A DNA stretch of 64,000 bases from Bacteroides sp. 214 (GTDB lineage: Bacteria; Bacteroidota; Bacteroidia; Bacteroidales; Bacteroidaceae). The notes beneath the pieces are model-generated. The model did no database searches. It saw only the letters and a list, made by a program, of their open reading frames with translations, and had not been told where the DNA came from. The stretch covers positions 372,001 through 436,000 of the forward strand of contig NZ_QVML01000002.1 of the NCBI RefSeq assembly GCF_010501015.1, given 5' to 3'. Below, piece by piece: positions 17,723-29,236 of the stretch; positions within the stretch are counted from its first letter, which is position 1; each line of letters starts with the position of its first letter. Position numbers and translations under genes: made by a program.

Positions 17723-17774
17723 TGTCAATAATTTACTTAACTTTGTTCCTTAATAATTTAATAAAACTTACACA

Positions 17775-18656
17775 ATGAAGAAAGCATTATTTACCGCAAT
17801 CTGCCTTTTTATAGGCTTTTCGATGGCTACGGCACAGGTTACTCTCACCTTTAATCCCGATAAAGGAACAAAGTATGACTATAGAATGGAAATGATCCAA
17901 AACATTAAGCAAAATGTTATGGGACAAGACATGGAAGTGAAACAAAATATGGTAACGCTTTACTCCATGGATATCATTGAAAAAAGCAAAGAGAGTGTTA
18001 AAGTAAAGTATGAATATAAAGAAGTTGTGTTTGAGTTATCGAGCATGATGATGAACATGAAGTATGATTCAAAGAATCCTGCTGCCAGTACAAGTCCTGT
18101 AGATGCTGCAATGGCTACTTTAATGGGCTCGCTCATTGGTAAATCGTTTGAAGCTGTTATTACTCCTGCCGGAAAAGTTCTTTCCGTAACCGGAATGGAC
18201 GAAATAGCTGCTGGCATGGTAGCTGCAGCAGGTGATGATGCGCAATTGCGTGCTATGGCCGAGCAAACAAAAGGACAATACTCAAACGAAGCTATCAAAG
18301 GTACATTGGAGCAGTCTTTCGGTATTTATCCGGCAGGAAAAGTAAAGGTAGGCGATTCGTGGAACGTGGAACAAAATATAGAATCAGCTGGAATGGCTAT
18401 TGATATAGCTTCGGTTTATAAACTGATTTCGACAGATAAAAACAATACGGTTATGGACGTAGAAGCTACTGTAGATGCTATGGATGGTCAGTTGAAAGGT
18501 GTACAAAATGGCACAATATCAGTAGAGTCGAAAACTGGTATCATAACCAAATCGGAGCTACAACAAAACATAAAAGGAACAGTTACGGCACAAGGCATGG
18601 ACATTGCGATGGACATGAACTCAAAGATTTTGGTGACAACCACTAAGGCAAAGTAA
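17775..18656 (+). CDS. Secreted protein of unknown function (DUF6263-like)
   Basis: 293 residues. A cleavable signal peptide (MKKALFTAICLFIGFSMATAQ) is followed by a methionine-rich, lysine-rich beta-type domain starting VTLTFNPDKGTKYDY. The body alternates short strands with polar turns and has no catalytic motif or lipobox. The opening pattern recalls DUF6263-like Bacteroidetes proteins, a recollection rather than a search result. A -7 box TAACTTTG lies at 17738-17745, and a strong terminator follows at 18681-18725, so it is probably a single-gene unit. Its location is the periplasm or outer membrane face. Confidence 0.75.
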   Translation: MKKALFTAICLFIGFSMATAQVTLTFNPDKGTKYDYRMEMIQNIKQNVMGQDMEVKQNMVTLYSMDIIEKSKESVKVKYEYKEVVFELSSMMMNMKYDSKNPAASTSPVDAAMATLMGSLIGKSFEAVITPAGKVLSVTGMDEIAAGMVAAAGDDAQLRAMAEQTKGQYSNEAIKGTLEQSFGIYPAGKVKVGDSWNVEQNIESAGMAIDIASVYKLISTDKNNTVMDVEATVDAMDGQLKGVQNGTISVESKTGIITKSELQQNIKGTVTAQGMDIAMDMNSKILVTTTKAK

Positions 18657-18680
18657 GCTAAGAAACTGTTTTGAATGATA

Positions 18681-18725
18681 GCGTGGAGAACTCTTCTTAT
18701 TAGAAGGAGGGTTCTCCGCGTTTTT
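18681..18725 (+). terminator. Rho-independent terminator after the DUF6263-like gene
   Basis: A 12-bp stem with G-U wobbles (CGTGGAGAACTC against GGGTTCTCCGCG) around a 16-nt loop, followed by TTTTT. Confidence 0.85.
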
Positions 18726-18756
18726 GTATCTACTCCAGGGGTAGTTTTACGAAATA

Positions 18757-18850
18757 GGTCTTCACCTTCACAAATCGCTGTAAGTGAATGGCAGTGAGTG
18801 CGTTGCGTGTGAAGACCCCCTTGTTTATCCTTCACAGGGCCTTCACGAGT
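18757..18850. repeat. Cluster of CTTCAC/GTGAAG words with a 9-bp inverted repeat
   Basis: GGTCTTCAC (18757-18765) is inverted as GTGAAGACC (18809-18817). CTTCAC recurs at 18766, 18830 and 18841. The spacing is not strictly 22 bp, unlike the two arrays that follow directly. No gene is supported here. Confidence 0.55.
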
Positions 18851-18853
18851 AAT

Positions 18854-18946
18854 TTTCTGACTGTTTTTCAAACAAAAAAACAGTCAGAAACAGTTCAAAA
18901 AACAGTCAGATGTGGAGCGAAAAACAGTCAGAAAAAGACATTGCTC
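18854..18946. repeat. 22-bp-period array with CAGTCAG core (copy 1)
   Basis: CAGTCAG starts at 18881, 18903 and 18925, exactly 22 bp apart. An inverted copy, TTTCTGACTGTTTTT (18854-18868), faces AAAAACAGTCAGAAA (18876-18890) and makes a 15-bp hairpin. The first full unit (18881-18902) is identical over 22 bp to the unit at 53220-53241 downstream of the MFS gene. Confidence 0.85.
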
Positions 18947-18968
18947 AAAGCATGTAAAAATGCACTTT

Positions 18969-19100
18969 CGTCAGCCATAGTCTTACCACCCGTCAACCAT
19001 AGTCTCAAGCTCCGTCTGCCATAGTCTCACCACCCGTCAGCCATAGGCAAATGCATCGTCAGCCTATGGCTCGTGGCCGGTCAGCCATAGTTGCTTTGAA
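18969..19100. repeat. 22-bp-period array, six units, core GTCAGCCATAG
   Basis: Variants of GTCAGCCATAG start at 18970, 18992, 19014, 19036, 19058 and 19080: six units exactly 22 bp apart. Units differ by substitutions (GTCAACCATAG, GTCTGCCATAG, GTCAGCCTATGG), and the second half (TCTCACCACC) is kept in some units only. The array ends about 165 bp before the exonuclease gene of the DUF262 operon, whose likely -7 box (TATATTTG, 19204-19211) lies between. Confidence 0.9.
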
Positions 19101-19264
19101 AAAAGAAGAACTTACGCTGTTATTTGGCATAAATGTAGTTTATTTTTGTTGAACTAAATAGCAAATAGTCTGAGTGTAATTCGGTTCAGAAAGGAATTGT
19201 GTATATATTTGTTATTGGTGACAACAGATTGTTCATATTATAGTACAAATGAATTAGAAAATAC

Positions 19265-19765
19265 ATGTTGAACTTTGCATCTATTGATTTTGAAACAGCA
19301 AATTACAATCGCTCAAGCATCTGTAGCCTGGGGATTGTTATTGTAGAAGACGGGAAAATAACAAATAAAATATACCGTCTTGTACGTCCACGACCTAATT
19401 TCTACTCCTCGTGGGCAACCGACATTCATGGCTTGTCTTATTATGACACATTAAGAGAGCCGGAGTTTCCTCAAATTTGGGAAGAGATAAGCCCCATGTT
19501 GAAAGGTCTTCCATTAGTAGCCCACAACAGCTCTTTTGATGCCGGTTGCCTAAAAGCCGTCCATGATTTGTATGGAATGGAATATCCAAATTATGAATTT
19601 CACTGTACTTATCGAATAGCAAAAAGAGTATTTCCCGACTTGGAGAATCATCAGTTGCATACGGTGGCGGCGCATGTTGGGTATGACTTGGAGGACCATC
19701 ATCACGCGTTGGCGGATGCGGAGGCGTGTGCGGAGATAGCGAAGAAAATAATTAAAATGAAATAG
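19265..19765 (+). CDS. DEDDh 3'-5' exonuclease (DnaQ-like), first gene of the DUF262 operon
   Basis: 166 residues, essentially only the exonuclease domain. The acidic motifs are visible: FASIDFETAN (motif I, DxE), HNSSFDAGCL (motif II) and HHALADAEACAEIAKKI (motif III, H-x4-D). Such small proteins resemble DNA polymerase III epsilon or RNase T. ATG 19265 is the first start and leaves 1 bp to the next gene, so it belongs to the DUF262 operon. It could supply nucleic acid degradation to that system, or be a general exonuclease caught in the island. Confidence 0.88.
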   Translation: MLNFASIDFETANYNRSSICSLGIVIVEDGKITNKIYRLVRPRPNFYSSWATDIHGLSYYDTLREPEFPQIWEEISPMLKGLPLVAHNSSFDAGCLKAVHDLYGMEYPNYEFHCTYRIAKRVFPDLENHQLHTVAAHVGYDLEDHHHALADAEACAEIAKKIIKMK

Positions 19766-19766
19766 T

Positions 19767-21593
19767 ATGAATGAATTTATTTACTCTATTAAAGATATTT
19801 TCAGTAATAGTCCCAAAACTGGTTGTTTGGGAGCAAATAAGCAAGAAGTTTACTACATTGCATCTTATCAACGAGGATACAAATGGGCTTCAGAAAGAAG
19901 TCTCGACCAAGTACCTCAATTGCTCATAGACCTTTACGAAGCGTTCTGCAAAGGAACAAATGAGTACTACCTGCAATACATCACAGTGAAGCCGGATAAT
20001 ATAGATTCCGATAAAAAATCGTTTGAAGTAATAGACGGACAGCAAAGACTAACTACCCTATCACTATTATTCTATGTCTTAGAGAAGCAAGGTTGTATTA
20101 ATATCACAAAGGATAAAATATTATATGCTCGATACGATGAAAATATTTTTGAAAAAGTAATCGAATTTACAGTTAATACGTCTGACAAAGATGATGAAAT
20201 TCCAACGCAAGACTTATATTATATGGTACGTGCATGTCGTTGTATAACTATGTTTTTTGAGTTGTTCAATGATGAAAATTACAAAAATAAATTCATAGAG
20301 TATATAATGAACAATGTAAAGATTATTGTAAATAAAGAAAGTGTTTATGTTTCGTCTGAAGATGTTTTTAGTAATCTAAACGACAATAAGGTTCCTTTGA
20401 CTAATGCATATTTAATTAAAGGCTTATTGCTCACAAAGGCTTCTCGAAAACTGAATATGTTCGGTAAACCTCTTCATTTTAAAGAGATTGTAGACCAACG
20501 AAATATTATGGGGCGTACTTGGGATGAAATAAACGCATGGTTCAATGAAGAAAAAGTAAAGTATTTCTTTTTCAAAGCAAATTCAAAAGCTGATGGGATG
20601 GAACATATGCTTAAATTAGTTGAATTAGGCAAAGGAAATGAATACATAAATGACAAAGGAATTATTCAACAATTTAAAGAGAAACTTTCTACAGACAAAG
20701 GAGCATATACAAGCCAATTTGAACTATTTAATCGCTATAAGGAATCGGTCGCAAGTGTAGCTGATGCCAATCACTTATTGTCTGAAATAAAACACATATA
20801 CAGATGTTTCAAAAACATATATAATAATCCCAACGACAATTCTCTGTTTAATTTGTTAGGATATAGCTTGTTTCATTCAAAAGAGGCTAAATATGAATTA
20901 AAAAATATTGCTTCTAAATCTGGCAAAGATTTGAAAGCTGAATTAATCGATAATGTGATAAGTATTCTTCCAAATAAAGAAGAGGACTTAAGAGCATTAA
21001 AGTACCCCAACAAAAAGATAAATCAATGGTTATTAGCCTTAAGTGTTTTTCCCGAGGACAAAAAAAAACAATATCGATTTGATTTTTATTCTTACGGAAA
21101 CGAAAAGTGGAGTTTGGAACATATTTCTCCACAAAATCCTGAGGTCGAAATTAAGGTCGATGACTCAGTTGTGGAGTGGTTATGTGGCGAAATACAAAAA
21201 AAAGAGAGTTTATCCGACAAAAAAAAAGTGTTAATAAATTCAATTAGAACAGAAAAGAAAATAGATGCAAAGGATATCGCGTTTTTGTATGAAAATGTAA
21301 GCGATGTAGATGTTCTTGGCAATATGGCATTGCTCTCGAGTGGTGTTAATAGTTCTTTAAGTAATAATCCATTCCCCATGAAAAGACGCATCCTGTTTGG
21401 AAAATCAAATCAGGGTTATTTTGTTCCCAAACACACGCTTGATGTATTTGCAAAAACACTTCCTGCCAAGAATGATAAATACTTTAATCCCGATTTTGTA
21501 AAGTGGGATGATACAGACATTTTCGCTCATACCGAATGGATGGCAAATAGATATTTAACTTTAATAGATGACTTAAAACAACAAAAAATATGA
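19767..21593 (+). CDS. DUF262 + DUF1524 (HNH) protein, GmrSD/SspE-like
   Basis: 608 residues. The N-terminal DUF262 domain has YIASYQRGYKWA near residue 30 and the hallmark FEVIDGQQRLTTLSLLFYVL near 90, a ParB/sulfiredoxin-like fold reported to bind or hydrolyse nucleotide in GmrS and SspE. NLNDNKVPLTNAYLIKGLLL is the conserved second DUF262 segment. The C-terminal part has WSLEHISPQNPE and GNMALLSSGVNSSLSNNPF, the H...N...N pattern of DUF1524 HNH nucleases. Proteins of this layout restrict modified phage DNA or sense phosphorothioation. It is AT-rich compared with the flanking core genes and overlaps the next gene by 4 bp. Confidence 0.9.
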   Translation: MNEFIYSIKDIFSNSPKTGCLGANKQEVYYIASYQRGYKWASERSLDQVPQLLIDLYEAFCKGTNEYYLQYITVKPDNIDSDKKSFEVIDGQQRLTTLSLLFYVLEKQGCINITKDKILYARYDENIFEKVIEFTVNTSDKDDEIPTQDLYYMVRACRCITMFFELFNDENYKNKFIEYIMNNVKIIVNKESVYVSSEDVFSNLNDNKVPLTNAYLIKGLLLTKASRKLNMFGKPLHFKEIVDQRNIMGRTWDEINAWFNEEKVKYFFFKANSKADGMEHMLKLVELGKGNEYINDKGIIQQFKEKLSTDKGAYTSQFELFNRYKESVASVADANHLLSEIKHIYRCFKNIYNNPNDNSLFNLLGYSLFHSKEAKYELKNIASKSGKDLKAELIDNVISILPNKEEDLRALKYPNKKINQWLLALSVFPEDKKKQYRFDFYSYGNEKWSLEHISPQNPEVEIKVDDSVVEWLCGEIQKKESLSDKKKVLINSIRTEKKIDAKDIAFLYENVSDVDVLGNMALLSSGVNSSLSNNPFPMKRRILFGKSNQGYFVPKHTLDVFAKTLPAKNDKYFNPDFVKWDDTDIFAHTEWMANRYLTLIDDLKQQKI

Positions 21594-24016
21594 ATACAGG
21601 AAGATATAGTTTAATTCAACTTTTGAACAATAATGAAATAGAGCAGATTATTATTCCGGAAATTCAACGCGACTATGTGTGGGGTGAAGAAAACGTGATT
21701 GCCTTGTTAGAATCTATTTGGTCAAATTTTAAGAATAAAAATAAAATGCAGCTAAGTATTAAAGATGGAGAAAAACAAGTTGATGAGAATATGCTATTAT
21801 TCTTATCAAAAGAGTATTCCAAAATACGTCATGCTACTCAAATTGGTTTTATTTATGCTTATCACGATGTTGAATATGCAGGGAAATTCTTTCTAATAGA
21901 CGGTCAGCAACGAATAACCTCCCTCTATCTATTATTATTAGCCCTTTATAAGAAGACTGAAAAAGAAACCGATTTTGCGTCATTATATTTTCAAAATAGA
22001 CAACTTAAACTCGATTATAAAGTTCGTGAAGTATCACACGATTTTATGCAAAGTTTTGTGGAACATATTCTGACAAATGAAAGTGTTGATTTTGAAAACA
22101 CTTCAAATTATTATCAAAACATTTATAAAACTGATATAACAACGGTTACACTAAGCAAGAATTTCGATACCATTTTTTCATTCTCTGCTTTCAAAGGAGT
22201 TGAGAAAAACGAACTCGTTGATTTTATTGATTATATCGAAAACTATATCGAATTCAATTATTTTGACACAAATCTAAGCGAACAAGGCGAACAATTATAT
22301 CTTTATATGAACAGCCGTGGTGAAAGTCTTTCTACTCAAGAGATTATTAAAACAACAATCATAAAACGAGCTGCAAACAAGAAAGAAGCTGGACGAAAAT
22401 GGGAAGAATGGCAAAATTTCTTTTGGAAATACCGAAAAGGAGGTGATGAAAAAGGTAATAAAGTTGAAAATCCGAATGCAGATAAAGGATTTGAAGAGTT
22501 CCTAAAGTGGGCGACGATTATACATATTTGTTCAAATGATGAGAAAAATATAAAATTAAAACCAGTGGAAACAAAGAATAATAAAACCCAAACCACTTTA
22601 GAGGTTAAGGAAGATTATATTCGATTTGAACCTGAAAATAAATGGTTGAAACAATACCAAAAAGAAAATGAAAGTTTCGATATTAATTTCTTAGATAACT
22701 TGTTCTGTGCTTTACAGTATCTTCAGAACAACAAAAGTGAACGACTAACTGGCAATAATTTACTTGAAAGTCCTTATTTTAGAGATAACTGGCTTTCTAA
22801 AACAATGCCTTGGATAGATTATAGTACTGTTTTAAGTGTCATTTTTTTTCTGAGCAAAAGCTATAAGATTGCTCTTGTTAATGATGTTGACAGCTTAGGG
22901 ATGTATTTTAAAAATATTCGTTATCGCCAAACAAATGTTGATAATCCAACAACAACTGTTATCAGGTGTCTTGAAAGCACAAAATACTTGCTAGCACAAA
23001 ATTGCTTCGATATTACTTTTTTGAAAAACGTAGAGAAAGGATCAAGACGCATTGTAAATGATTCAGATGAAATTATTCTTTCTTGTTATAAACAATCAAA
23101 TAGGAAAGAGTGGGAAGATGCCATTTGGAGTATTACCAATCAAGATGATTTTGCCAGTTTCCTAGATGGTAATTATTCTTTTTTCTTTGAATGTTCAAAA
23201 AATGGGCAAGGAGAATATTCGGTTGATGAATTTGTAAAATACAAAGAACTTTTCTTTGCCAAAATATATAATCGAAAAAATGAGGATGAACTGAGACGAG
23301 AATTATTAACGATTGGAGATTACATGCAAAACGATGGTGGTGGCAGTTGGAATCTAAACGGTTATATGGAAAGAAGAAATGCAAATACAAATGAGAAGAA
23401 AAATTGGGAAAACATTTTGTTAAATAAAGCTGAATTAGTTAAGGAGTATTTGACCCCACAAGTTATAAACAAAGTAGAACCATATTCAGATACATGGAGA
23501 GAACCTTTTATTGTAGAAAAGAGTGTATTTGACTACATGGGACAGAAAAAATTTTTAAGGACGGACGAAGGGCGAATTGTTCTGCTTCATGGTCACCAAG
23601 CGGGTGTTTATAATTCTCGAGCAATCCAAATTCAATTATTTCACGTTAAGCTACCCAAAAGTTGGGTACATACTTATGATATCTGTGTACAAGAATTTGA
23701 CTTTGTGAATAGTAAAATAGAATTCAAAGAAAGCAACAATGATATTTTTTTGTTTATTGATGTTCAATACGAATGGAAAAATAACGGTGGAGAGTGGTAT
23801 TTATACATTGGATATAGAAAAGGTGAAGAAAAAGTGAAGTTTGACTATGTGTTAAATCTTTTGGATAGCGCTACTGAAAATTGGATTTTAATTGATGATC
23901 AGAACAAGAAGAAAATGAAGCAACCATTCTTTATTGATAAGTCTGAATTATCTATTATGCAAAATGTAAATGAAGCGTTTAATAAGTTTCGCAGCATAAT
24001 CTTTTTTGATATTTGA
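21590..24016 (+). CDS. Second DUF262 protein with an unrecognised C-terminal domain
   Basis: 808 residues. DUF262 motifs are IIPEIQRDYVWGEENVIALL near 20-40, FFLIDGQQRITSLYLLLLAL near 100 and LYMNSRGESLSTQEIIKTTI near 240. No EHIxPQ/HNH motif is visible, so it differs from its upstream partner. The last 250 residues are rich in aromatic and acidic positions (RIVLLHGHQAGVYNSRAIQI, YDICVQEFDF, WYLYIGYRKGEEKV) and match nothing I recognise. It overlaps the upstream gene by 4 bp, is strongly AT-rich, and is followed by a phosphoesterase gene. The two DUF262 proteins probably act together. Confidence 0.85.
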   Translation: MNTGRYSLIQLLNNNEIEQIIIPEIQRDYVWGEENVIALLESIWSNFKNKNKMQLSIKDGEKQVDENMLLFLSKEYSKIRHATQIGFIYAYHDVEYAGKFFLIDGQQRITSLYLLLLALYKKTEKETDFASLYFQNRQLKLDYKVREVSHDFMQSFVEHILTNESVDFENTSNYYQNIYKTDITTVTLSKNFDTIFSFSAFKGVEKNELVDFIDYIENYIEFNYFDTNLSEQGEQLYLYMNSRGESLSTQEIIKTTIIKRAANKKEAGRKWEEWQNFFWKYRKGGDEKGNKVENPNADKGFEEFLKWATIIHICSNDEKNIKLKPVETKNNKTQTTLEVKEDYIRFEPENKWLKQYQKENESFDINFLDNLFCALQYLQNNKSERLTGNNLLESPYFRDNWLSKTMPWIDYSTVLSVIFFLSKSYKIALVNDVDSLGMYFKNIRYRQTNVDNPTTTVIRCLESTKYLLAQNCFDITFLKNVEKGSRRIVNDSDEIILSCYKQSNRKEWEDAIWSITNQDDFASFLDGNYSFFFECSKNGQGEYSVDEFVKYKELFFAKIYNRKNEDELRRELLTIGDYMQNDGGGSWNLNGYMERRNANTNEKKNWENILLNKAELVKEYLTPQVINKVEPYSDTWREPFIVEKSVFDYMGQKKFLRTDEGRIVLLHGHQAGVYNSRAIQIQLFHVKLPKSWVHTYDICVQEFDFVNSKIEFKESNNDIFLFIDVQYEWKNNGGEWYLYIGYRKGEEKVKFDYVLNLLDSATENWILIDDQNKKKMKQPFFIDKSELSIMQNVNEAFNKFRSIIFFDI

Positions 24017-24021
24017 TTTCT

Positions 24022-24627
24022 ATGCGCCTCCTCCACCTCTCCGACACCCACAACCTTCATCGGCAGTTAACCAATTTACCGACTGCTGATATTATTGTCC
24101 ATTCCGGCGACATTTCGTACGCCGGAACCGGCAAGGAGGTTATGGATTTTATCGAGTGGTTTGGAATGTTGAATTACAAATATAAAATCTTCATAGCCGG
24201 GAATCATGATTTTTGTTTAGAAAGAAAGGACAGAGAAATAATCCAGCAGTTTTTACCTGAAAATTGCTTTTACCTTTGCAATAGCGGCATCACAGTAGAA
24301 AATGTGAAATTTTGGGGAATCCCATTTTTCTTTTCGGATGATGTAGGTGGTGAGTATTTTAATCAGACTGCACAAATTCCGGCAGATACTGATGTTTTAA
24401 TCTCGCATCGCCCACCATTAGGTGTCTTAGATAGTGCTAATAACATTAGTTATGGTTGCCCCGATTTACTCCAAAAAGTATTGGAAATTCGTCCACGCTA
24501 TCACCTCTTTGGGCATATTCACGATGCTTATGGGGTTGAAAAGTCAAAACACACTACTTTTATTAACACGGCAATCGTTGACGAAGGTTATCAACTAAAG
24601 AATACTCCTTTTGTATTTGATATATGA
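24022..24627 (+). CDS. Calcineurin-like metallophosphoesterase, last gene of the DUF262 operon
   Basis: About 201 residues. All metal motifs of the fold are present: LSDTHNLH, IIVHSGDIS, IAGNHDF, LISHRPPLG and LFGHIHDAYG. The frame opens at a TTG overlapping the previous stop, but ATG 24022, 5 bp after that stop, gives the standard MRLLHLSDTH start. Relatives include nucleases and cyclic-nucleotide or dinucleotide phosphatases; sequence alone does not tell which. A strong terminator follows at once, so it closes the four-gene operon. Composition at its start is less AT-rich than the DUF262 genes, so it may have a different origin. Confidence 0.87.
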   Translation: MRLLHLSDTHNLHRQLTNLPTADIIVHSGDISYAGTGKEVMDFIEWFGMLNYKYKIFIAGNHDFCLERKDREIIQQFLPENCFYLCNSGITVENVKFWGIPFFFSDDVGGEYFNQTAQIPADTDVLISHRPPLGVLDSANNISYGCPDLLQKVLEIRPRYHLFGHIHDAYGVEKSKHTTFINTAIVDEGYQLKNTPFVFDI

Positions 24628-24631
24628 ATCT

Positions 24632-24664
24632 AAAAAAAACTGCTCACATGGGCAGTTTTTTTTT
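24632..24664. terminator. Terminator closing the DUF262 operon
   Basis: ACTGC / GCAGT stem extended by A8 on the left and a run of T on the right (AAAACTGC...GCAGTTTT); 8-nt loop. It could work on both strands. Confidence 0.85.
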
Positions 24665-24757
24665 AGTCTTCATCATTAACTATGCCACTGTTTGGCGTAT
24701 CACTCTGTTATCTTTGTAGTATAATTAATATATGTACAACAATAAAGAATTAAAATT

Positions 24758-25279
24758 ATGACAACAAGAAATTTAAATGAAGATTTTGTAGAAAAAGTAA
24801 TTGAAGATTTAGCGTGGAAGGAAATATCAGGTAATTTGCCTTGGAGTGAGCCACTTTTGGAGAAATATAAAGATATGCTAAATTGGAAGGAAGTTTCTGC
24901 TAATAGAGAAATTTTATGGACTAATTCTATGGTTGAAAAGTATAAGAACCTGATCGATTGGGACGAACTATCTGAATCTACATCATGGAGTCTGTTTTCT
25001 GCTGAAATGCTTGAAGAATATAAGGCATATTGGAATTGGTCAAAACTATCCTCTAACTCACACATCAAGTTTACTCGGGAATTATTGACGGAATTTGTCG
25101 ATAAATGGGATTGGGAAGAAATCATTTCCAATTGGGAGTTAGATGAATTGTTTAATTCGGATTTTCTAAAAGAGTTTAATCACTATATTCCGGCATCTGC
25201 TCTTCAATCGTCGCGTTTATGGACTTGCTTGATTGAACAAAGAAAAGAAGAACTTGTTCGAAAAATCAGAACATATTGA
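24758..25279 (+). CDS. Small Trp-rich repeat protein of unknown function
   Basis: 173 residues, soluble, acidic. Five tandem units of about 25-27 residues share the pattern W-x-W/D-x-x-(L/I/V)-S-x-N...(L/M)-x-E-(Y/F)-K: LAWKEISGN, LNWKEVSAN, IDWDELSES, WNWSKLSSN and WDWEEIISN each open a unit. This suggests a short helical-repeat solenoid. No catalytic motif or signal peptide is present. A -7 box TATCTTTG (24709-24716) precedes it and a hairpin terminator follows, so it is a single-gene unit. An immunity or adaptor role is possible, but nothing here proves it. Confidence 0.75.
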   Translation: MTTRNLNEDFVEKVIEDLAWKEISGNLPWSEPLLEKYKDMLNWKEVSANREILWTNSMVEKYKNLIDWDELSESTSWSLFSAEMLEEYKAYWNWSKLSSNSHIKFTRELLTEFVDKWDWEEIISNWELDELFNSDFLKEFNHYIPASALQSSRLWTCLIEQRKEELVRKIRTY

Positions 25280-25284
25280 CACTC

Positions 25285-25307
25285 AACCTTTTTGACTCAA
25301 AAAGGTT
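25285..25307 (+). terminator. Hairpin terminator after the Trp-repeat gene
   Basis: Perfect 10-bp stem AACCTTTTTG / CAAAAAGGTT with a 3-nt loop. Only a short T-rich tail (TCTT) follows, so the evidence is moderate. Confidence 0.6.
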
Positions 25308-25398
25308 TCTTATTAATACTCAGAAATAAGGACCATTTCACCAATCCTGAGACAGATTTACAAGTTGAAACAAGCTTATGATAACACAAATAATTGAT

Positions 25399-26109
25399 AT
25401 GAGATTATATCTCTTAATGGCTGCCAAAATATTTTTCTTTTCTTGCGCAGAGAAGAAAGACAGACAGCCTCAATCATATAGACCGGCAGTACAACCGTCT
25501 TTTTCGACAGATAAAAAAGAAATGGTTCAAAAGGATGTAAAGTTTTCGTTCATATTAGAAGTATTCAATAATCTAAAAAACCAAAAGAGGTATGAAGAAG
25601 CATTATCCATTTATGAAGATAACGAATTTCATTTTTTACTTTATTTTAAGACATCAACAGCTATATACGAATTTCATCTTGAAATTATTGATCTATATCA
25701 CAAGTATTACAATGAATCATTTGCTCTTAAGAGGGAAATTGAATTATTAGAATTTGATGAACTTATAGCGAATATGGTTATCGAATCTGCTGAAGATAAT
25801 CATATTCCAGAACACTATGGCTACCTTATCTCTTCATTATTTCATTCCTATATGGAAACTAAAGATTGGAAAAAAGCTCAAAAGCAGTGTGAAAACATGA
25901 GGGATTTTGCTGATAGTATGGGAGGAAAAGAAAGCAGTGCTTATGCAACTGCCTTGTTTAACCAAGCAATGCTTTACTCTGAAGTGGGGAATAGAAAGAA
26001 GGCCATAGAAATAATGCTTGAAACTAAACAGATTTATGAGTTGGCGGGGATGAAACATACTAATGAGTGGGAAAATTGCCTAAGTATGCTTACTGAATGG
26101 TTTGATTAG
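25399..26109 (+). CDS. Unknown protein with TPR-like helical repeats, possible lipoprotein
   Basis: About 236 residues. Starting at ATG 25399 gives a hydrophobic leader (MRLYLLMAAKIFFFSC) with a Cys at a lipobox-like place, but FFSC is a poor match to the lipobox, so lipidation is uncertain. ATG 25378 is an alternative. The body is all-helical with paired segments such as LKNQKRYEEALSIYED, METKDWKKAQKQCENM and AMLYSEVGNRKKAIEIMLET, typical of TPR units. No catalytic motif is visible. It is AT-rich and island-type in composition. Its function is not recognised. Confidence 0.65.
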   Translation: MRLYLLMAAKIFFFSCAEKKDRQPQSYRPAVQPSFSTDKKEMVQKDVKFSFILEVFNNLKNQKRYEEALSIYEDNEFHFLLYFKTSTAIYEFHLEIIDLYHKYYNESFALKREIELLEFDELIANMVIESAEDNHIPEHYGYLISSLFHSYMETKDWKKAQKQCENMRDFADSMGGKESSAYATALFNQAMLYSEVGNRKKAIEIMLETKQIYELAGMKHTNEWENCLSMLTEWFD

Positions 26110-26157
26110 AGAGGCTAACCCAATATTGTACTGGGCTCATTTATTGAGGTTCTTATC

Positions 26158-26346
26158 TTATCCCTTCTGAAAACACTCTGCAGCAGTAAGCAGAAAGCAG
26201 TAATTCGGCAAGCTATTATCTATAGTTACCCACAGCTCACTTTCCAATTCTTGAATGACAAAGAAAAGAGATTCGGTATTTTCCAACTCGTTCTTTTTAA
26301 TTCTGCTTTTTTCAATTATAGAAAATGGAGAAATAAACATATCCAT
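26158..26346 (-). CDS. Small hypothetical protein, possibly a gene remnant
   Basis: 62 residues from ATG 26346 (MDMFISPFSIIEKSRIKKNE onward), ending with TAAECFQKG. It is hydrophilic with a mixed helix pattern and has natural-looking amino acid use. It lies alone on the minus strand between two plus-strand genes. I recognise no family. It could be the tail of a decayed gene or a chance frame. Confidence 0.35.
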   Translation of the reverse strand: MDMFISPFSIIEKSRIKKNELENTESLFFVIQELESELWVTIDNSLPNYCFLLTAAECFQKG

Positions 26347-26480
26347 AGGCAATGGCAAAGACAGTAGCACTATATGCCAATTTATACCATAGCCTGAAAA
26401 TGACAGTTAATTATATTGTATGCTGTTTTTTGGCACATAGCCGCATTACATTTGCATTAAATCATATAAAAACAATAGAT

Positions 26481-28181
26481 ATGCGACAGTTAAAGATTAC
26501 ACAGGAAGACGAAAATATCAACAAAGATGTTGATAAAAAGGCTCCCAAAACAATGTTAGAGCACATAGAGTGTATCGTAGAATTAGTTGAAAACTCCAGT
26601 CTAAATAAAGACTTCTTTCAGAAGGCGAAAAAAAGCATTAATTATGTGGCAAAGAAGATGAAATTAACAACAAATCAGGTGGTACTATTAGCTGTTTTTA
26701 TTGAGAAAAGCGATAATAATAGTATTGAAATTAGTGACCTTTCAGAATTCATTAAATGTCGTAATATAAAGATAATAACTTTAATGAAAGACATTGATGA
26801 ACTTGAAAATAGACGATTGGTTCGTTGTCGTAGAAACTATGATAAGCCTTCGTATAGAGTTCCTTTTGATGTCATAAAAGCAGTCAAAGAAAATGAAATA
26901 TACGAACCCAAGTGTACGAAAAATCTCTCCACAATAGAATTATTTAGTCATATTGAAACTTTGATTGAAGAAAAAAGAGAAAAAGAAATAACATACGAAG
27001 CACTGATTGACGAGTTAGAATTGCTACTTGAGAACAATTCATCTTTAGCTTTTTGTCAGCAAGTGAAAATTTATATGGCATCCTTTTTTTCTTCTCGTCG
27101 CAGCTTCTTGCTTCTTCTCTTATTTTGCCATTATTTCATTAATGAGTCGGACGATTGTCTGGGCTTTCATAACTTAGAAGATTTCTTTGAGAAAGTGGAA
27201 TTTCGTCATATACAGGAATTCTTAAAGTTGGGCGAACATAAACTATTGAGAACTAAATTGATAGAGAATGTAAATGATAATGGGATGGGTAATAGGGAAT
27301 ACTTTAAGCTGACTGACGAAGCGAAAGAAAAACTTTTTGTTGAGTTGGATATTAAAACAACTCAAAGCAACAACAAAAAGGACCTTATGCAGCATGCTGA
27401 AATAACGTCAAAAGAATTGTTTTACAACAAACGGGAACAATCACAAATTATGCAACTCACATCACTTATTCATAAGGATAACTTCCAAGCAGTTCAGGAG
27501 AAGTTGGAAAAAGGAGGAATGAGAAAGGGATTTGCGTGTTTGTTTTATGGAGCGCCCGGCACCGGAAAAACAGAGACCGCTTATCAGATTGCTCGCTCTA
27601 CCGGAAGAGATCTTATGATGGTGGACATATCCGAAACAAAAAGTATGTGGTATGGGGAGAGTGAAAAGAGAATAAAGGGTATCTTTGAAAAGTACAAGAG
27701 TTTTTTGAAAACATGCGAAGTTGCACCGATCCTGTTATTCAACGAAGCTGACGCGGTTATTGGTAAACGAAAAGAAGCAGGGCGGGGAACTATCGATCAA
27801 ACAGAAAATGCAATACAGAATATCTTATTACAAGAGATGGAGAATCTGGAAGGAATAATGATTGCCACAACCAATCTTACACAGAATCTGGATAAAGCTT
27901 TTGAACGAAGGTTCCTATACAAGATTGAATTTGACAAGCCTTGTGTTGAGGCCAAAGAAAAAATATGGCATACCATGCTACCAGCATTGTCCGAACAGGA
28001 AAGGTTGGAATTGGCACATAATTATAACTTCAGTGGTGGGCAAATAGAGAATATCGTTAGAAAATATACAGTAGACTCCATCTTAAACGGAATAGCGCCA
28101 ACGTTGGATACAATACATGGCTACTGCCAAAGTGAGTCTTTATATAAAAATGAAGAACGAAAAAAGATAGGATTTTTATGA
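26481..28181 (+). CDS. AAA+ ATPase with N-terminal helical/winged-helix region
   Basis: About 566 residues. The C-terminal AAA+ module has Walker A LFYGAPGTGKTETAYQIAR (near 357-364), Walker B LLFNEAD (418-424), sensor 1 ATTN, arginine-finger region FERRFLYKIEF and sensor 2 FSGGQIENIVRK. The Walker B aspartate is replaced by Asn. The N-terminal 300 residues contain helix-turn-helix-like segments (SDLSEFIKCRNIKIITLMKD, then DELENRRLVRCRR). The frame extends to 26352, but a -7 box TACATTTG (26447-26454) lies between, so ATG 26481 (MRQLKITQED) is the likely start. A WYL regulator gene follows. A remodelling or defence role is inferred from context only. Confidence 0.85.
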   Translation: MRQLKITQEDENINKDVDKKAPKTMLEHIECIVELVENSSLNKDFFQKAKKSINYVAKKMKLTTNQVVLLAVFIEKSDNNSIEISDLSEFIKCRNIKIITLMKDIDELENRRLVRCRRNYDKPSYRVPFDVIKAVKENEIYEPKCTKNLSTIELFSHIETLIEEKREKEITYEALIDELELLLENNSSLAFCQQVKIYMASFFSSRRSFLLLLLFCHYFINESDDCLGFHNLEDFFEKVEFRHIQEFLKLGEHKLLRTKLIENVNDNGMGNREYFKLTDEAKEKLFVELDIKTTQSNNKKDLMQHAEITSKELFYNKREQSQIMQLTSLIHKDNFQAVQEKLEKGGMRKGFACLFYGAPGTGKTETAYQIARSTGRDLMMVDISETKSMWYGESEKRIKGIFEKYKSFLKTCEVAPILLFNEADAVIGKRKEAGRGTIDQTENAIQNILLQEMENLEGIMIATTNLTQNLDKAFERRFLYKIEFDKPCVEAKEKIWHTMLPALSEQERLELAHNYNFSGGQIENIVRKYTVDSILNGIAPTLDTIHGYCQSESLYKNEERKKIGFL

Positions 28182-28248
28182 AACAAGTCATTAATACCGA
28201 GCAAATATCAAATGTCTGATGCGTATCAAGGTATAACTAGTGCTATAT

Positions 28249-28279
28249 CTTGGCAAAAAGAGAACTCTTGTTACCTTTG
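28249..28279 (+). promoter_or_regulatory. Promoter of the WYL regulator gene
   Basis: CTTG (28249-28252; 3 of 4 matches to TTTG), a 19-bp spacer, then TACCTTTG (28272-28279). The ATG at 28296 follows by 16 bp. Confidence 0.6.
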
Positions 28280-28295
28280 TAAAAAACGATACAAT

Positions 28296-29228
28296 ATGAA
28301 AACAAAAAAATCAAGCAAAGACACTACATCAAACTTGTTTAATCGCTACGTTTGGTTAGTAGACATCATCTACAGGCGGGGAAAGATTACTTTTGAAGAA
28401 ATCAATGAGTACTGGCAAAGGTCGCAGTTAAACCTCGATGGTGAAGACCTTCCTTTACGTACTTTCCACAATCATCGGCAAGCAATTGAGCAAATGTTTG
28501 ATATAAATATAGAGTGTGATAAGAAGAATGGTTACAAATACTATATAGAAAACACCGATGATATGGAGCGTGGAGGTGTTAGAAGTTGGCTGTTAAATAC
28601 GTTTGCTGTTAATAATCTGATAAATGAAAGTCATAAACTTAAACAACGGATTTTATTTGAAAAGATACCATCCGGGCAAATGCATCTAACACCTATTATT
28701 GAAGCAATGAGAGATAGTCTTTCTATAGAACTGACTCATCAAAGCTTTTGGCGTGATACACCTAGCACTTTTGAAATCTCTCCTTACTGTATAAAGGTAT
28801 TTAAGCAGCGTTGGTATGTTATAGGGAGCAATCCAGATAGAGATGACGTCTTTATTTATGCTTTAGATAGGATCAAGCATATTCGCATTACTGAGAATAA
28901 ATTTCAGTTACCTAAGGATTTTGATGGAGAAGCATTTTTTGCAGACTGCTTTGGGATTGTGGCCGGAGATGGACACGAGGTAGAGAACGTTCTGATTAAG
29001 GTATATAAAATTCAAGATAGCTACATCAGGACTTTGCCATTGCATCACTCTCAAAAGGAGGTTGAGAATACGCCCGAATATACCATATTCAGCTATCGTA
29101 TAAAACCAAGCTTTGACTTTCGGCAAGAGTTACTGTCGCATGGTGCAGATGTTGAGGTCTTATCCCCCAAATGGTTTAGGGATGAATTCGCAGAGATTAT
29201 ATCACAACAACATAGTTTCTATCAATAA
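28296..29228 (+). CDS. WYL-domain transcriptional regulator
   Basis: About 310 residues. The N-terminal winged-helix part is NLFNRYVWLVDIIYRRGKIT, EEINEYWQRS and LPLRTFHNHRQAIEQMF. The WYL domain follows (about 140-230) with ISPYCIKVFKQRWYVIGSNP and DRIKHIRITENKF, then a WCX-type C-terminus. WYL proteins bind nucleic acid or nucleotide ligands and often control phage-defence loci. The frame starts further upstream, but the promoter at 28249-28279 fixes ATG 28296. It has its own promoter although it follows the AAA+ gene in the same direction. It converges on ygiQ with 8 bp between. Confidence 0.87.
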   Translation: MKTKKSSKDTTSNLFNRYVWLVDIIYRRGKITFEEINEYWQRSQLNLDGEDLPLRTFHNHRQAIEQMFDINIECDKKNGYKYYIENTDDMERGGVRSWLLNTFAVNNLINESHKLKQRILFEKIPSGQMHLTPIIEAMRDSLSIELTHQSFWRDTPSTFEISPYCIKVFKQRWYVIGSNPDRDDVFIYALDRIKHIRITENKFQLPKDFDGEAFFADCFGIVAGDGHEVENVLIKVYKIQDSYIRTLPLHHSQKEVENTPEYTIFSYRIKPSFDFRQELLSHGADVEVLSPKWFRDEFAEIISQQHSFYQ

Positions 29229-29236
29229 CATAAACT

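What the first reader, a model, noticed from the sequence alone, without database searches (positions are those of the whole stretch)
19265..24627. Four-gene operon: DEDDh exonuclease, two DUF262 proteins, metallophosphoesterase
Gaps are 1 bp, a 4-bp overlap and 5 bp, with a terminator behind. DUF262+DUF1524 proteins of the GmrSD/SspE type are known nucleases against modified or phosphorothioated DNA. Here one such protein is paired with a second DUF262 protein that has no HNH motif and an unrecognised C-terminus, and two further nuclease-type enzymes flank them. The genes are AT-rich against the core. I do not recognise this four-gene combination as a named defence system.
Basis: partly seen in the sequence, partly recalled or inferred. 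Interest (0 to 1): 0.7.

Follow-up and report, generated by a model that had tools for sequence, protein, structure and literature searches.

The report
Two-part DNA-cutting defence with helpers
A bacterium carries, in an acquired stretch of DNA, what looks like a known kind of two-protein anti-virus DNA cutter sandwiched between two helper enzymes that recur beside such cutters elsewhere but are not always present.

Summary
In detail: four co-directional genes (gaps 1, -4 and 5 bp) end at a strong hairpin. The central pair has the published GrwAB architecture: DUF262+DUF1524 first, then DUF262 with a long C-terminus in which no nuclease was recognised (PMC12137116). By inference it is a modification-dependent restriction pair; GrwA and GrwB themselves were not compared. 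Two adjacent DUF262 genes occur in 81 of 82 related loci: the pair is the conserved unit. A DEDDh exonuclease lies within two genes of the pair in 17 of 82 loci, and all 22 copies in the flanks held share its strand. The MPPED2-like phosphoesterase directly follows the second gene in 3 of 82. Closely similar pairs occur with and without the exonuclease, so it is an optional accessory. Exonuclease and phosphoesterase also sit together without the pair. The genes lie in an AT-rich insertion between mfd and ygiQ, which are neighbours in both congeners examined. One Prevotella plasmid carries all six recurring island families. Known core, unnamed accessory arrangement; function untested.

The parts
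19265..19765 (+). DEDDh 3'-5' exonuclease, 166 aa, optional accessory
   Evidence: Pfam RNase_T 2.9e-20; PDB DNA polymerase III epsilon 2.2e-9; DEDDh residues intact
19767..21593 (+). GrwA/TgvB-like DUF262 + DUF1524 (HNH) protein, 608 aa; inferred sensor and nuclease
   Evidence: Pfam GmrSD_N and GmrSD_C over cut-off; SspE and a DUF262 protein in PDB; H452, N519, N528 invariant in the three sequences
21590..24016 (+). GrwB-like DUF262 protein without HNH, 808 aa; inferred obligate partner
   Evidence: GmrSD_N 6.9e-24; model pLDDT 84.3; residues 1-561 match SspE Z 18.1, 3-523 DndI Z 16.9, 3-514 BrxU Z 6.7; C-terminal stretch 545-808 alone has no confident fold match
24022..24627 (+). MPPED2-like metallophosphoesterase, 201 aa, optional accessory
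   Evidence: PDB 3rl4 MPPED2 E 2.1e-32; PADLOC candidate PDC-S10 E 1.3e-78
24629..24667 (+). intrinsic terminator-like hairpin closing the four-gene unit
   Evidence: -18.2 kcal/mol, z -5.6; not listed by the scan
24758..25279 (+). 173-aa repeat protein, recurring island gene ('c9')
   Evidence: cluster with L091, L095, L228; phrog_3532 5.3e-15
25378..26109 (+). TPR protein in the same island
   Evidence: TPR_12 2.6e-7
26352..28181 (+). AAA ATPase, family found in the flanks of DUF262 pairs
   Evidence: Pfam AAA 3.3e-25; in 10 of 82 pair loci, within two genes in 3; 81% identical in G359
28212..29228 (+). WYL-domain regulator, family that often sits directly upstream of the DEDDh gene
   Evidence: WYL 1.3e-14; in 22 of 82 pair loci, directly upstream of DEDDh in 11
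17723..29236 (.). inserted stretch between mfd and ygiQ
   Evidence: mfd and ygiQ adjacent in both congeners examined, gaps 345 and 606 bp

Best explanation
The core is a two-protein, GrwAB-type, modification-dependent (type IV) restriction system. Inferred from published GrwAB, TgvAB and SspE work: the DUF262 domains of both proteins bind and hydrolyse NTP on meeting modified phage DNA, and the DUF1524 (HNH) domain of the first protein then nicks or cuts it. The second protein shares the SspE-like sensor and helical part but has a different C-terminus, with no nuclease recognised, in place of the HNH domain, and is probably an obligate partner. The DEDDh exonuclease most likely degrades 3' ends at the nicks and so turns them into gaps (inferred). 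The MPPED2-like phosphoesterase is a rarer helper, perhaps cleaning ends or nucleotide products (weakly inferred). All sit in an acquired, WYL- and AAA-containing defence island whose accessories are exchangeable. Shown here: gene content, intact motifs, conserved pairing, non-random placement and strand of the exonuclease, and the insertion. Not shown: any activity.
For: Two adjacent same-strand DUF262 genes in 81 of 82 loci (80 of the 123 genomic relatives found, plus 2 viral contigs); 62 of the 85 boundaries between adjacent DUF262 ORFs overlap, with mechanically chosen starts; 79 of the 85 pairs have a DGQQR-type motif in both proteins, and in 72 an EH-x-P-type HNH motif is in the first and not in the second. 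Architecture and catalytic residues as described for GrwAB. N-terminal fold like SspE, DndI and BrxU. DEDDh: 22 copies in 1.14 Mb of flanks, 22 of 22 on the pair's strand, 17 within two genes, 5.9 expected. Similar pairs with and without it: L052 with, L053 without (8.1 kb upstream and 9.8 kb downstream held; second proteins 92% identical); L100 and L101 with (592 bp upstream), L099 and L102 without (only 2.0 and 1.6 kb upstream held; 99%). MPE is the next gene after the second DUF262 gene in L084, L088, L095. Named plasmid NZ_CP091789: WYL, 3'-5' exonuclease, 1 bp, DUF262, DUF262, later an AAA ATPase, with a metallophosphatase 2.3 kb upstream of the WYL gene on the other strand; all six match the families here, the two DUF262 proteins at only 26-30% identity. 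C. balustinum plasmid: exonuclease, 5 bp, DUF262, DUF262. mfd and ygiQ adjacent in both congeners. In G359, DEDDh 85%, MPE 77%, AAA 81%, WYL 88% identical against about 70% for core YgiQ, with a different DUF262 pair.
Against: No activity data. GrwA and GrwB were not fetched, so kinship with them rests on architecture and residue pattern. The DEDDh family is common in the order (a match at E<=1e-3 in 236 of 295 genomes) and often stands beside metabolic genes: of 10 neighbour proteins chosen for, 6 had clear non-defence Pfam domains, one an Exo_endo_phos domain, two no Pfam match and one GmrSD. The phosphoesterase is next to the pair in only 3 of 82 loci (positional p 0.06). WYL and AAA genes are not closer to the pair than chance within the flanks (p 0.20 and 0.60). 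The third DUF262 motif of the second protein reads YxxxN, not FxxxN. The closest published PT-sensing enzymes match the second protein's fold better than BrxU does.
Confidence: 0.7

Rival explanations
1. The exonuclease and phosphoesterase form their own two-gene module (nucleic-acid processing or a separate defence) into which the DUF262 pair was inserted; they are co-transcribed but not functionally coupled with the pair.
For: In a congener (L131) the two genes are adjacent (54 bp) with no DUF262 match in the 16.5 kb held; in L235 they are adjacent in reverse order (7 bp). On two Marinobacter plasmids a phosphoesterase of the family overlaps a gene annotated 3'-5' exonuclease by 4 bp, with no DUF262 match in the stretch held; that exonuclease matches the DEDDh model only weakly (20 and 28 bits). 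In the window, L088 and L239 the pair lies between exonuclease and phosphoesterase.
Against: In 16 of the 17 near cases the exonuclease is beside a DUF262 pair with no phosphoesterase next to that pair, which suggests coupling to the pair as well.
Confidence: 0.35
2. Chance clustering in a defence island: the four genes are independent cargo that collect at the same hot spot.
For: The DEDDh and phosphoesterase families occur in many unrelated contexts; island content is a mosaic.
Against: 22 of 22 same strand and 17 of 22 within two genes against 5.9 expected; gaps of 1-22 bp between exonuclease and first DUF262 gene in the window, L052, L108, L126, NZ_CP091789 and NZ_CP033935.
Confidence: 0.2
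3. An SspE/DndI-like phosphorothioate-dependent system that uses a host PT mark.
For: Best structural matches of the second protein are SspE and DndI; PADLOC SspE models match both DUF262 proteins partially.
Against: No DndC match in the own genome (SspB/C/D not searched); no Dnd or Ssp modification protein among the 8 proteins of 19265-29228 that were scanned.
Confidence: 0.07

Closest known systems
GrwAB (V. cholerae WASA VSP-II, PMC12137116)
   Same: Two genes; first DUF262+DUF1524, second DUF262 with long C-terminus of unknown domains and no DUF1524; DGQQR and His-Me residues present
   Different: Here flanked by a DEDDh exonuclease and an MPPED2-like phosphoesterase inside a WYL/AAA island; direct sequence comparison with GrwA/GrwB not made; third motif of second protein YxxxN
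TgvAB (PMC11411939)
   Same: Two-protein GmrSD-like system, one member with DUF1524; in 10 of 82 loci the pair lies between an HsdS-family and an HsdR-family gene, recalling the type I embedding of tgvAB
   Different: Gene order reversed (TgvA, the DUF262-only protein, comes first, as I infer from locus tags and a passage); the GrwAB paper calls GrwB and TgvA distinct apart from DUF262
SspE / DndI / BrxU / GmrSD
   Same: DUF262 fold and helical domain of the second protein (Z 18.1, 16.9, 6.7)
   Different: Described as typically single proteins (PMC12409362 passage); here two DUF262 proteins, one without the nuclease domain
MPPED1/MPPED2 class III phosphodiesterases
   Same: Two matched stretches together cover the bacterial protein, E 2.1e-32 to 3rl4; metal-site motifs present
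   Different: Bacterial, in several loci beside nuclease or DNA-modification genes; substrate unknown

Membership tests
GrwAB | adjacent genes: DUF262+DUF1524 first, DUF262 without DUF1524 second | tested here: met
   two adjacent DUF262 genes in 81 of 82 related loci
[quoted passage not shown]
   QR and DGQQR in both; FSNLN in the first; the second has YLYMN at the invariant N241 instead of FxxxN
GrwAB | His-Me residues H...N...N in the first protein | tested here: met
   H452, N519, N528 invariant in the 3-sequence alignment; the two Asn are 9 apart as in GrwA N521/N530
GrwAB | sequence homology to GrwA and GrwB themselves | not tested
   those sequences were not fetched; one search found 12 of 274 gammaproteobacterial genomes with a match (one of them the starting genome), none identified as GrwB
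GrwAB | both genes needed; restricts phages with modified DNA | not testable with these tools
   needs phage assays
TgvAB | DUF262-only gene first, DUF1524 gene second | tested here: not met
   order is reversed in the window; order of tgvA and tgvB inferred from PMC11411939 passages
SspE (phosphorothioate-dependent) | host phosphorothioation genes present | tested here: inconclusive
   DndC family TIGR03183: no match in the own genome (the genome is 99% complete); SspB/C/D not searched
DEDDh exonuclease | D, E, D, H, D catalytic residues | tested here: met
   D8, E10, D92, H146, D151
MPPED2-type phosphodiesterase | sequence match along the domain and metal-binding motifs | tested here: met
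   (query residues 2-69 and 69-201); activity untested

The most novel reading that the evidence does not exclude
In Bacteroidota a modular type IV restriction platform exists: WYL regulator, DEDDh exonuclease, an exchangeable DUF262-DUF262/HNH pair, and interchangeable end-processing enzymes (MPPED2-like phosphoesterase, PLD-family or other), in which the accessory nucleases convert modification-triggered nicks into lethal damage of phage DNA, and the sensor pair can be swapped while the accessory frame stays.
Probability: 0.3. Interest if true: 0.68.

Novelty: new variant of a known kind. Interest (0 to 1): 0.45.

Why it matters
Two-protein GmrSD-like systems were described in 2024-2025, and why a second DUF262 protein is needed is open (PMC11411939, PMC12137116). 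This locus and its relatives give a set, mostly from Bacteroidota, in which the pair is nearly invariant and the accessories vary, so the roles of sensor, partner and end-processing enzymes can be tested one by one. It also suggests that a DEDDh exonuclease is a recurrent helper of modification-dependent restriction.

Tried and rejected
Considered and rejected: a wholly new four-gene system (the pair matches GrwAB in architecture; accessories vary). Considered: the second protein as a degenerate HNH nuclease; its model matches SspE only to residue 561, and the C-terminal model alone gave no Foldseek match at E<=0.001 and at most Z 5.6 (CapZ-like, YbjN and gelsolin/ADF-like rows, too weak to name). 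Phage records hold no match to the second protein at E<=1e-6. Sigma-70-like and terminator-like consensus scans were at shuffle level, and a Bacteroides-type promoter pattern (recalled) gave no site in 15-32 kb, so no promoter is claimed. Search for the 293-aa upstream gene in four relatives was empty, which proves little. In G139 and G359 ygiQ has other neighbours than mfd, so they say nothing on the insertion. The two G359 contigs (L226, L227) could not be shown to be contiguous. Gammaproteobacterial survey: 12 of 274 genomes with a match, the starting genome included, no clear GrwB. The Marinobacter exonucleases turned out to be distant DEDDh relatives, so that parallel is weaker than the plasmid annotation suggests. 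Statistics: the binomial treats loci as independent; L099-L102, L109/L110, L052/L053, L057/L058 and L106/L115 are close relatives and were not removed. The DEDDh label covers ORFs of 101-455 aa. Only 80 of 123 genomic relatives were kept by the tool, and several loci end close to the pair. DUF262 genes were labelled by home-made HMMs; recurring neighbour clusters were named from one representative each.
Full report
Observation. The phosphoesterase starts at ATG 24022; the listed TTG at 24013 is a mechanical choice. A hairpin at about 24629-24667 folds far better than shuffles (z -5.6), although the simple scan did not list it.

What the proteins are. Protein 1 is a bare DEDDh exonuclease domain with its catalytic residues. 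Protein 2 is DUF262 plus DUF1524 with H452, N519 and N528. Protein 3 is DUF262 only; its AlphaFold2 model (pLDDT 84.3, 41-sequence alignment) matches SspE over residues 1-561 (Z 18.1), DndI (16.9) and BrxU (6.7). Its C-terminal part gave no confident fold, in the whole model or as a separate model of residues 545-808. Protein 4 is a homologue of MPPED2: 3rl4, E 2.1e-32, with two matched stretches that together cover the query. That a Drosophila MPPED enzyme is a class III metallophosphodiesterase acting on cAMP and cGMP is seen in the abstract start of PMC10547211 (search listing).

Known relatives of the pair. TgvAB (PMC11411939, passages and one section read) is a two-protein GmrSD-like system in which both proteins are required. 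GrwAB (PMC12137116, passages and one section; review PMC12409362, passages) has DUF262+DUF1524 first and a DUF262 protein with multiple unknown C-terminal domains second; both are needed, and it restricts phages with sugar-modified cytosine or 7-deazaguanine. The window's pair has the GrwAB order and architecture. I did not compare it with GrwA or GrwB sequences. The own genome has no DndC match, which speaks against a phosphorothioate-dependent reading but does not exclude SspBCD.

Conservation of the pair. A scan of the species-genome collection gave 123 relatives of protein 3, of which 80 were kept; IMG/VR gave 2. In 81 of these 82 loci two DUF262 genes lie next to each other on one strand; 62 of 85 such boundaries overlap, with mechanically chosen starts. 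In 79 of the 85 pairs both proteins have a DGQQR-type motif, and in 72 an EH-x-P-type HNH motif is in the first protein and not in the second. In 10 of 82 loci, several from Flavobacteriia and one from Glaciecola, the pair sits between an HsdS-family and an HsdR-family gene. This recalls the embedding of tgvAB in a type I locus.

The exonuclease. Twenty-two DEDDh-family ORFs (101-455 aa) lie in the 1.14 Mb of flanks; all 22 are on the pair's strand, 17 within two genes, 10 directly adjacent. Placed at random among the flank genes, 5.9 of 22 would be that near (binomial p about 1e-6, loci treated as independent, which they are not fully). In 11 of 82 loci a WYL gene is directly upstream of the DEDDh gene. 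The same exonuclease family is common and often alone: 236 of 295 genomes of the order have a match. Of 30 DEDDh loci examined (three of them fetched for the phosphoesterase), a DUF262 gene is directly downstream in 4 (L210, L225, L227; L223 by Pfam), and a WYL gene directly upstream in 3. Of 10 neighbour proteins scanned, 6 had clear non-defence domains, one an Exo_endo_phos domain, two none, one GmrSD. Its presence is optional: L052 has it and L053 lacks it although their second proteins are 92% identical; L100 and L101 have it 592 bp upstream, and L099 and L102 do not in the 2.0 and 1.6 kb held, at 99% identity.

The phosphoesterase. It is rarer (29 of 295 genomes of the order at E<=1e-3; 27 of 295 in the class sample). 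It is the next gene after the second DUF262 gene in L084, L088 and L095 (positional p 0.06). It sits beside the exonuclease without DUF262 in the congener G073 (L131) and in G432 (L235). On two Marinobacter plasmids it overlaps by 4 bp a gene annotated as 3'-5' exonuclease, a weak match to the DEDDh model here, with no DUF262 match in the stretch held. Of 10 other neighbours scanned, two were MBL-fold hydrolases and one each a DNA methylase, a PD-(D/E)XK nuclease, a T5orf172 protein and a DUF; four had no Pfam match.

The island. Both congeners examined have ygiQ and mfd side by side (345 and 606 bp), so 17723-29236 is most simply an insertion in this genome; in two further relatives ygiQ has other neighbours. 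The stretch also holds a 293-aa protein gene, a repeat protein, a TPR protein, an AAA ATPase and a WYL regulator, the last two of families found round DUF262 pairs (10 and 22 of 82 loci), though not closer to the pair than chance within the flanks. In G359, of another family, DEDDh is 85%, phosphoesterase 77%, AAA 81% and WYL 88% identical to the window's, above the core YgiQ (about 70%), yet its DUF262 pair is different (local identity 27-38%). The exonuclease-pair and phosphoesterase-AAA-WYL parts lie on two contigs that I could not join. A named Prevotella plasmid carries WYL, exonuclease, 1 bp, DUF262, DUF262 and, further on, the AAA ATPase, with the phosphoesterase 2.3 kb upstream of WYL on the other strand; its DUF262 proteins are only 26-30% identical to the window's. 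A Chryseobacterium balustinum plasmid carries exonuclease, DUF262, DUF262; a Segatella plasmid carries a pair with no exonuclease listed beside it.

How it most likely works. By analogy with GrwAB, TgvAB and SspE, the pair senses modified phage DNA through DUF262 NTPase domains and nicks or cuts it with the HNH domain of protein 2. Inference, not shown here: the exonuclease widens nicks from 3' ends; the phosphoesterase removes end or nucleotide products. WYL regulators are reported to co-localise with defence systems and islands (title and abstract start of PMC9122601, search listing), so regulation of the island by its WYL protein is plausible.

Novelty. No paper in the library joins the words DUF262, exonuclease and phosphoesterase (none), and the listings for WYL with DEDDh and for GmrSD with WYL did not show this arrangement (listings only). 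The library misses most subscription papers. I therefore call it a new variant of a known kind, with moderate interest.

Noticed in passing
window 18788-19100: A small ORF and short degenerate repeats just upstream of the exonuclease; the ORF is 61% identical over 49 aa to one 4.4 kb upstream of the genome's second DEDDh gene (L240:4698-4937). Possibly an interspersed repeat at the island edge.
   Followed up: partly
G000:C6 (L240:9354-9956) and G000:C22:494634-495221 (L130:7629-8222): The same genome has second copies of the exonuclease (74% identical, two genes before a TonB receptor gene) and of the phosphoesterase (59-61%), both outside the island.
   Followed up: partly
G000:C66:58178-58858: A third DUF262 gene of the genome, on another contig.
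   Followed up: no
window 26352-29228: AAA ATPase (partial IetA match) followed 30 bp later by a WYL regulator; the two are 1 bp apart in G359 (L226).
   Followed up: partly
window 24758-25279; L228:6680-8215: Protein with repeated W-containing units; the L228 relative is a 511-aa protein matching it in several stretches.
   Followed up: no
L101:12273-12788 and L049, L099, L102, L104, L118, L210, L239: A ~170-aa PLD-family protein, in several loci directly after the DUF262 pair, the place the phosphoesterase takes in the window.
   Followed up: partly
L119: Two DUF262 pairs in tandem.
   Followed up: no
L275:7390-8729, L276:371-1626: Marinobacter plasmids with a two-gene overlap of a distant DEDDh-like exonuclease and a phosphoesterase of this family, no DUF262 match in the stretch held.
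   Followed up: partly
L233:8214-9500, L236:9951-11213, L273:4260-5765: MBL-fold hydrolase genes overlapping the phosphoesterase gene, another recurrent partner.
   Followed up: no
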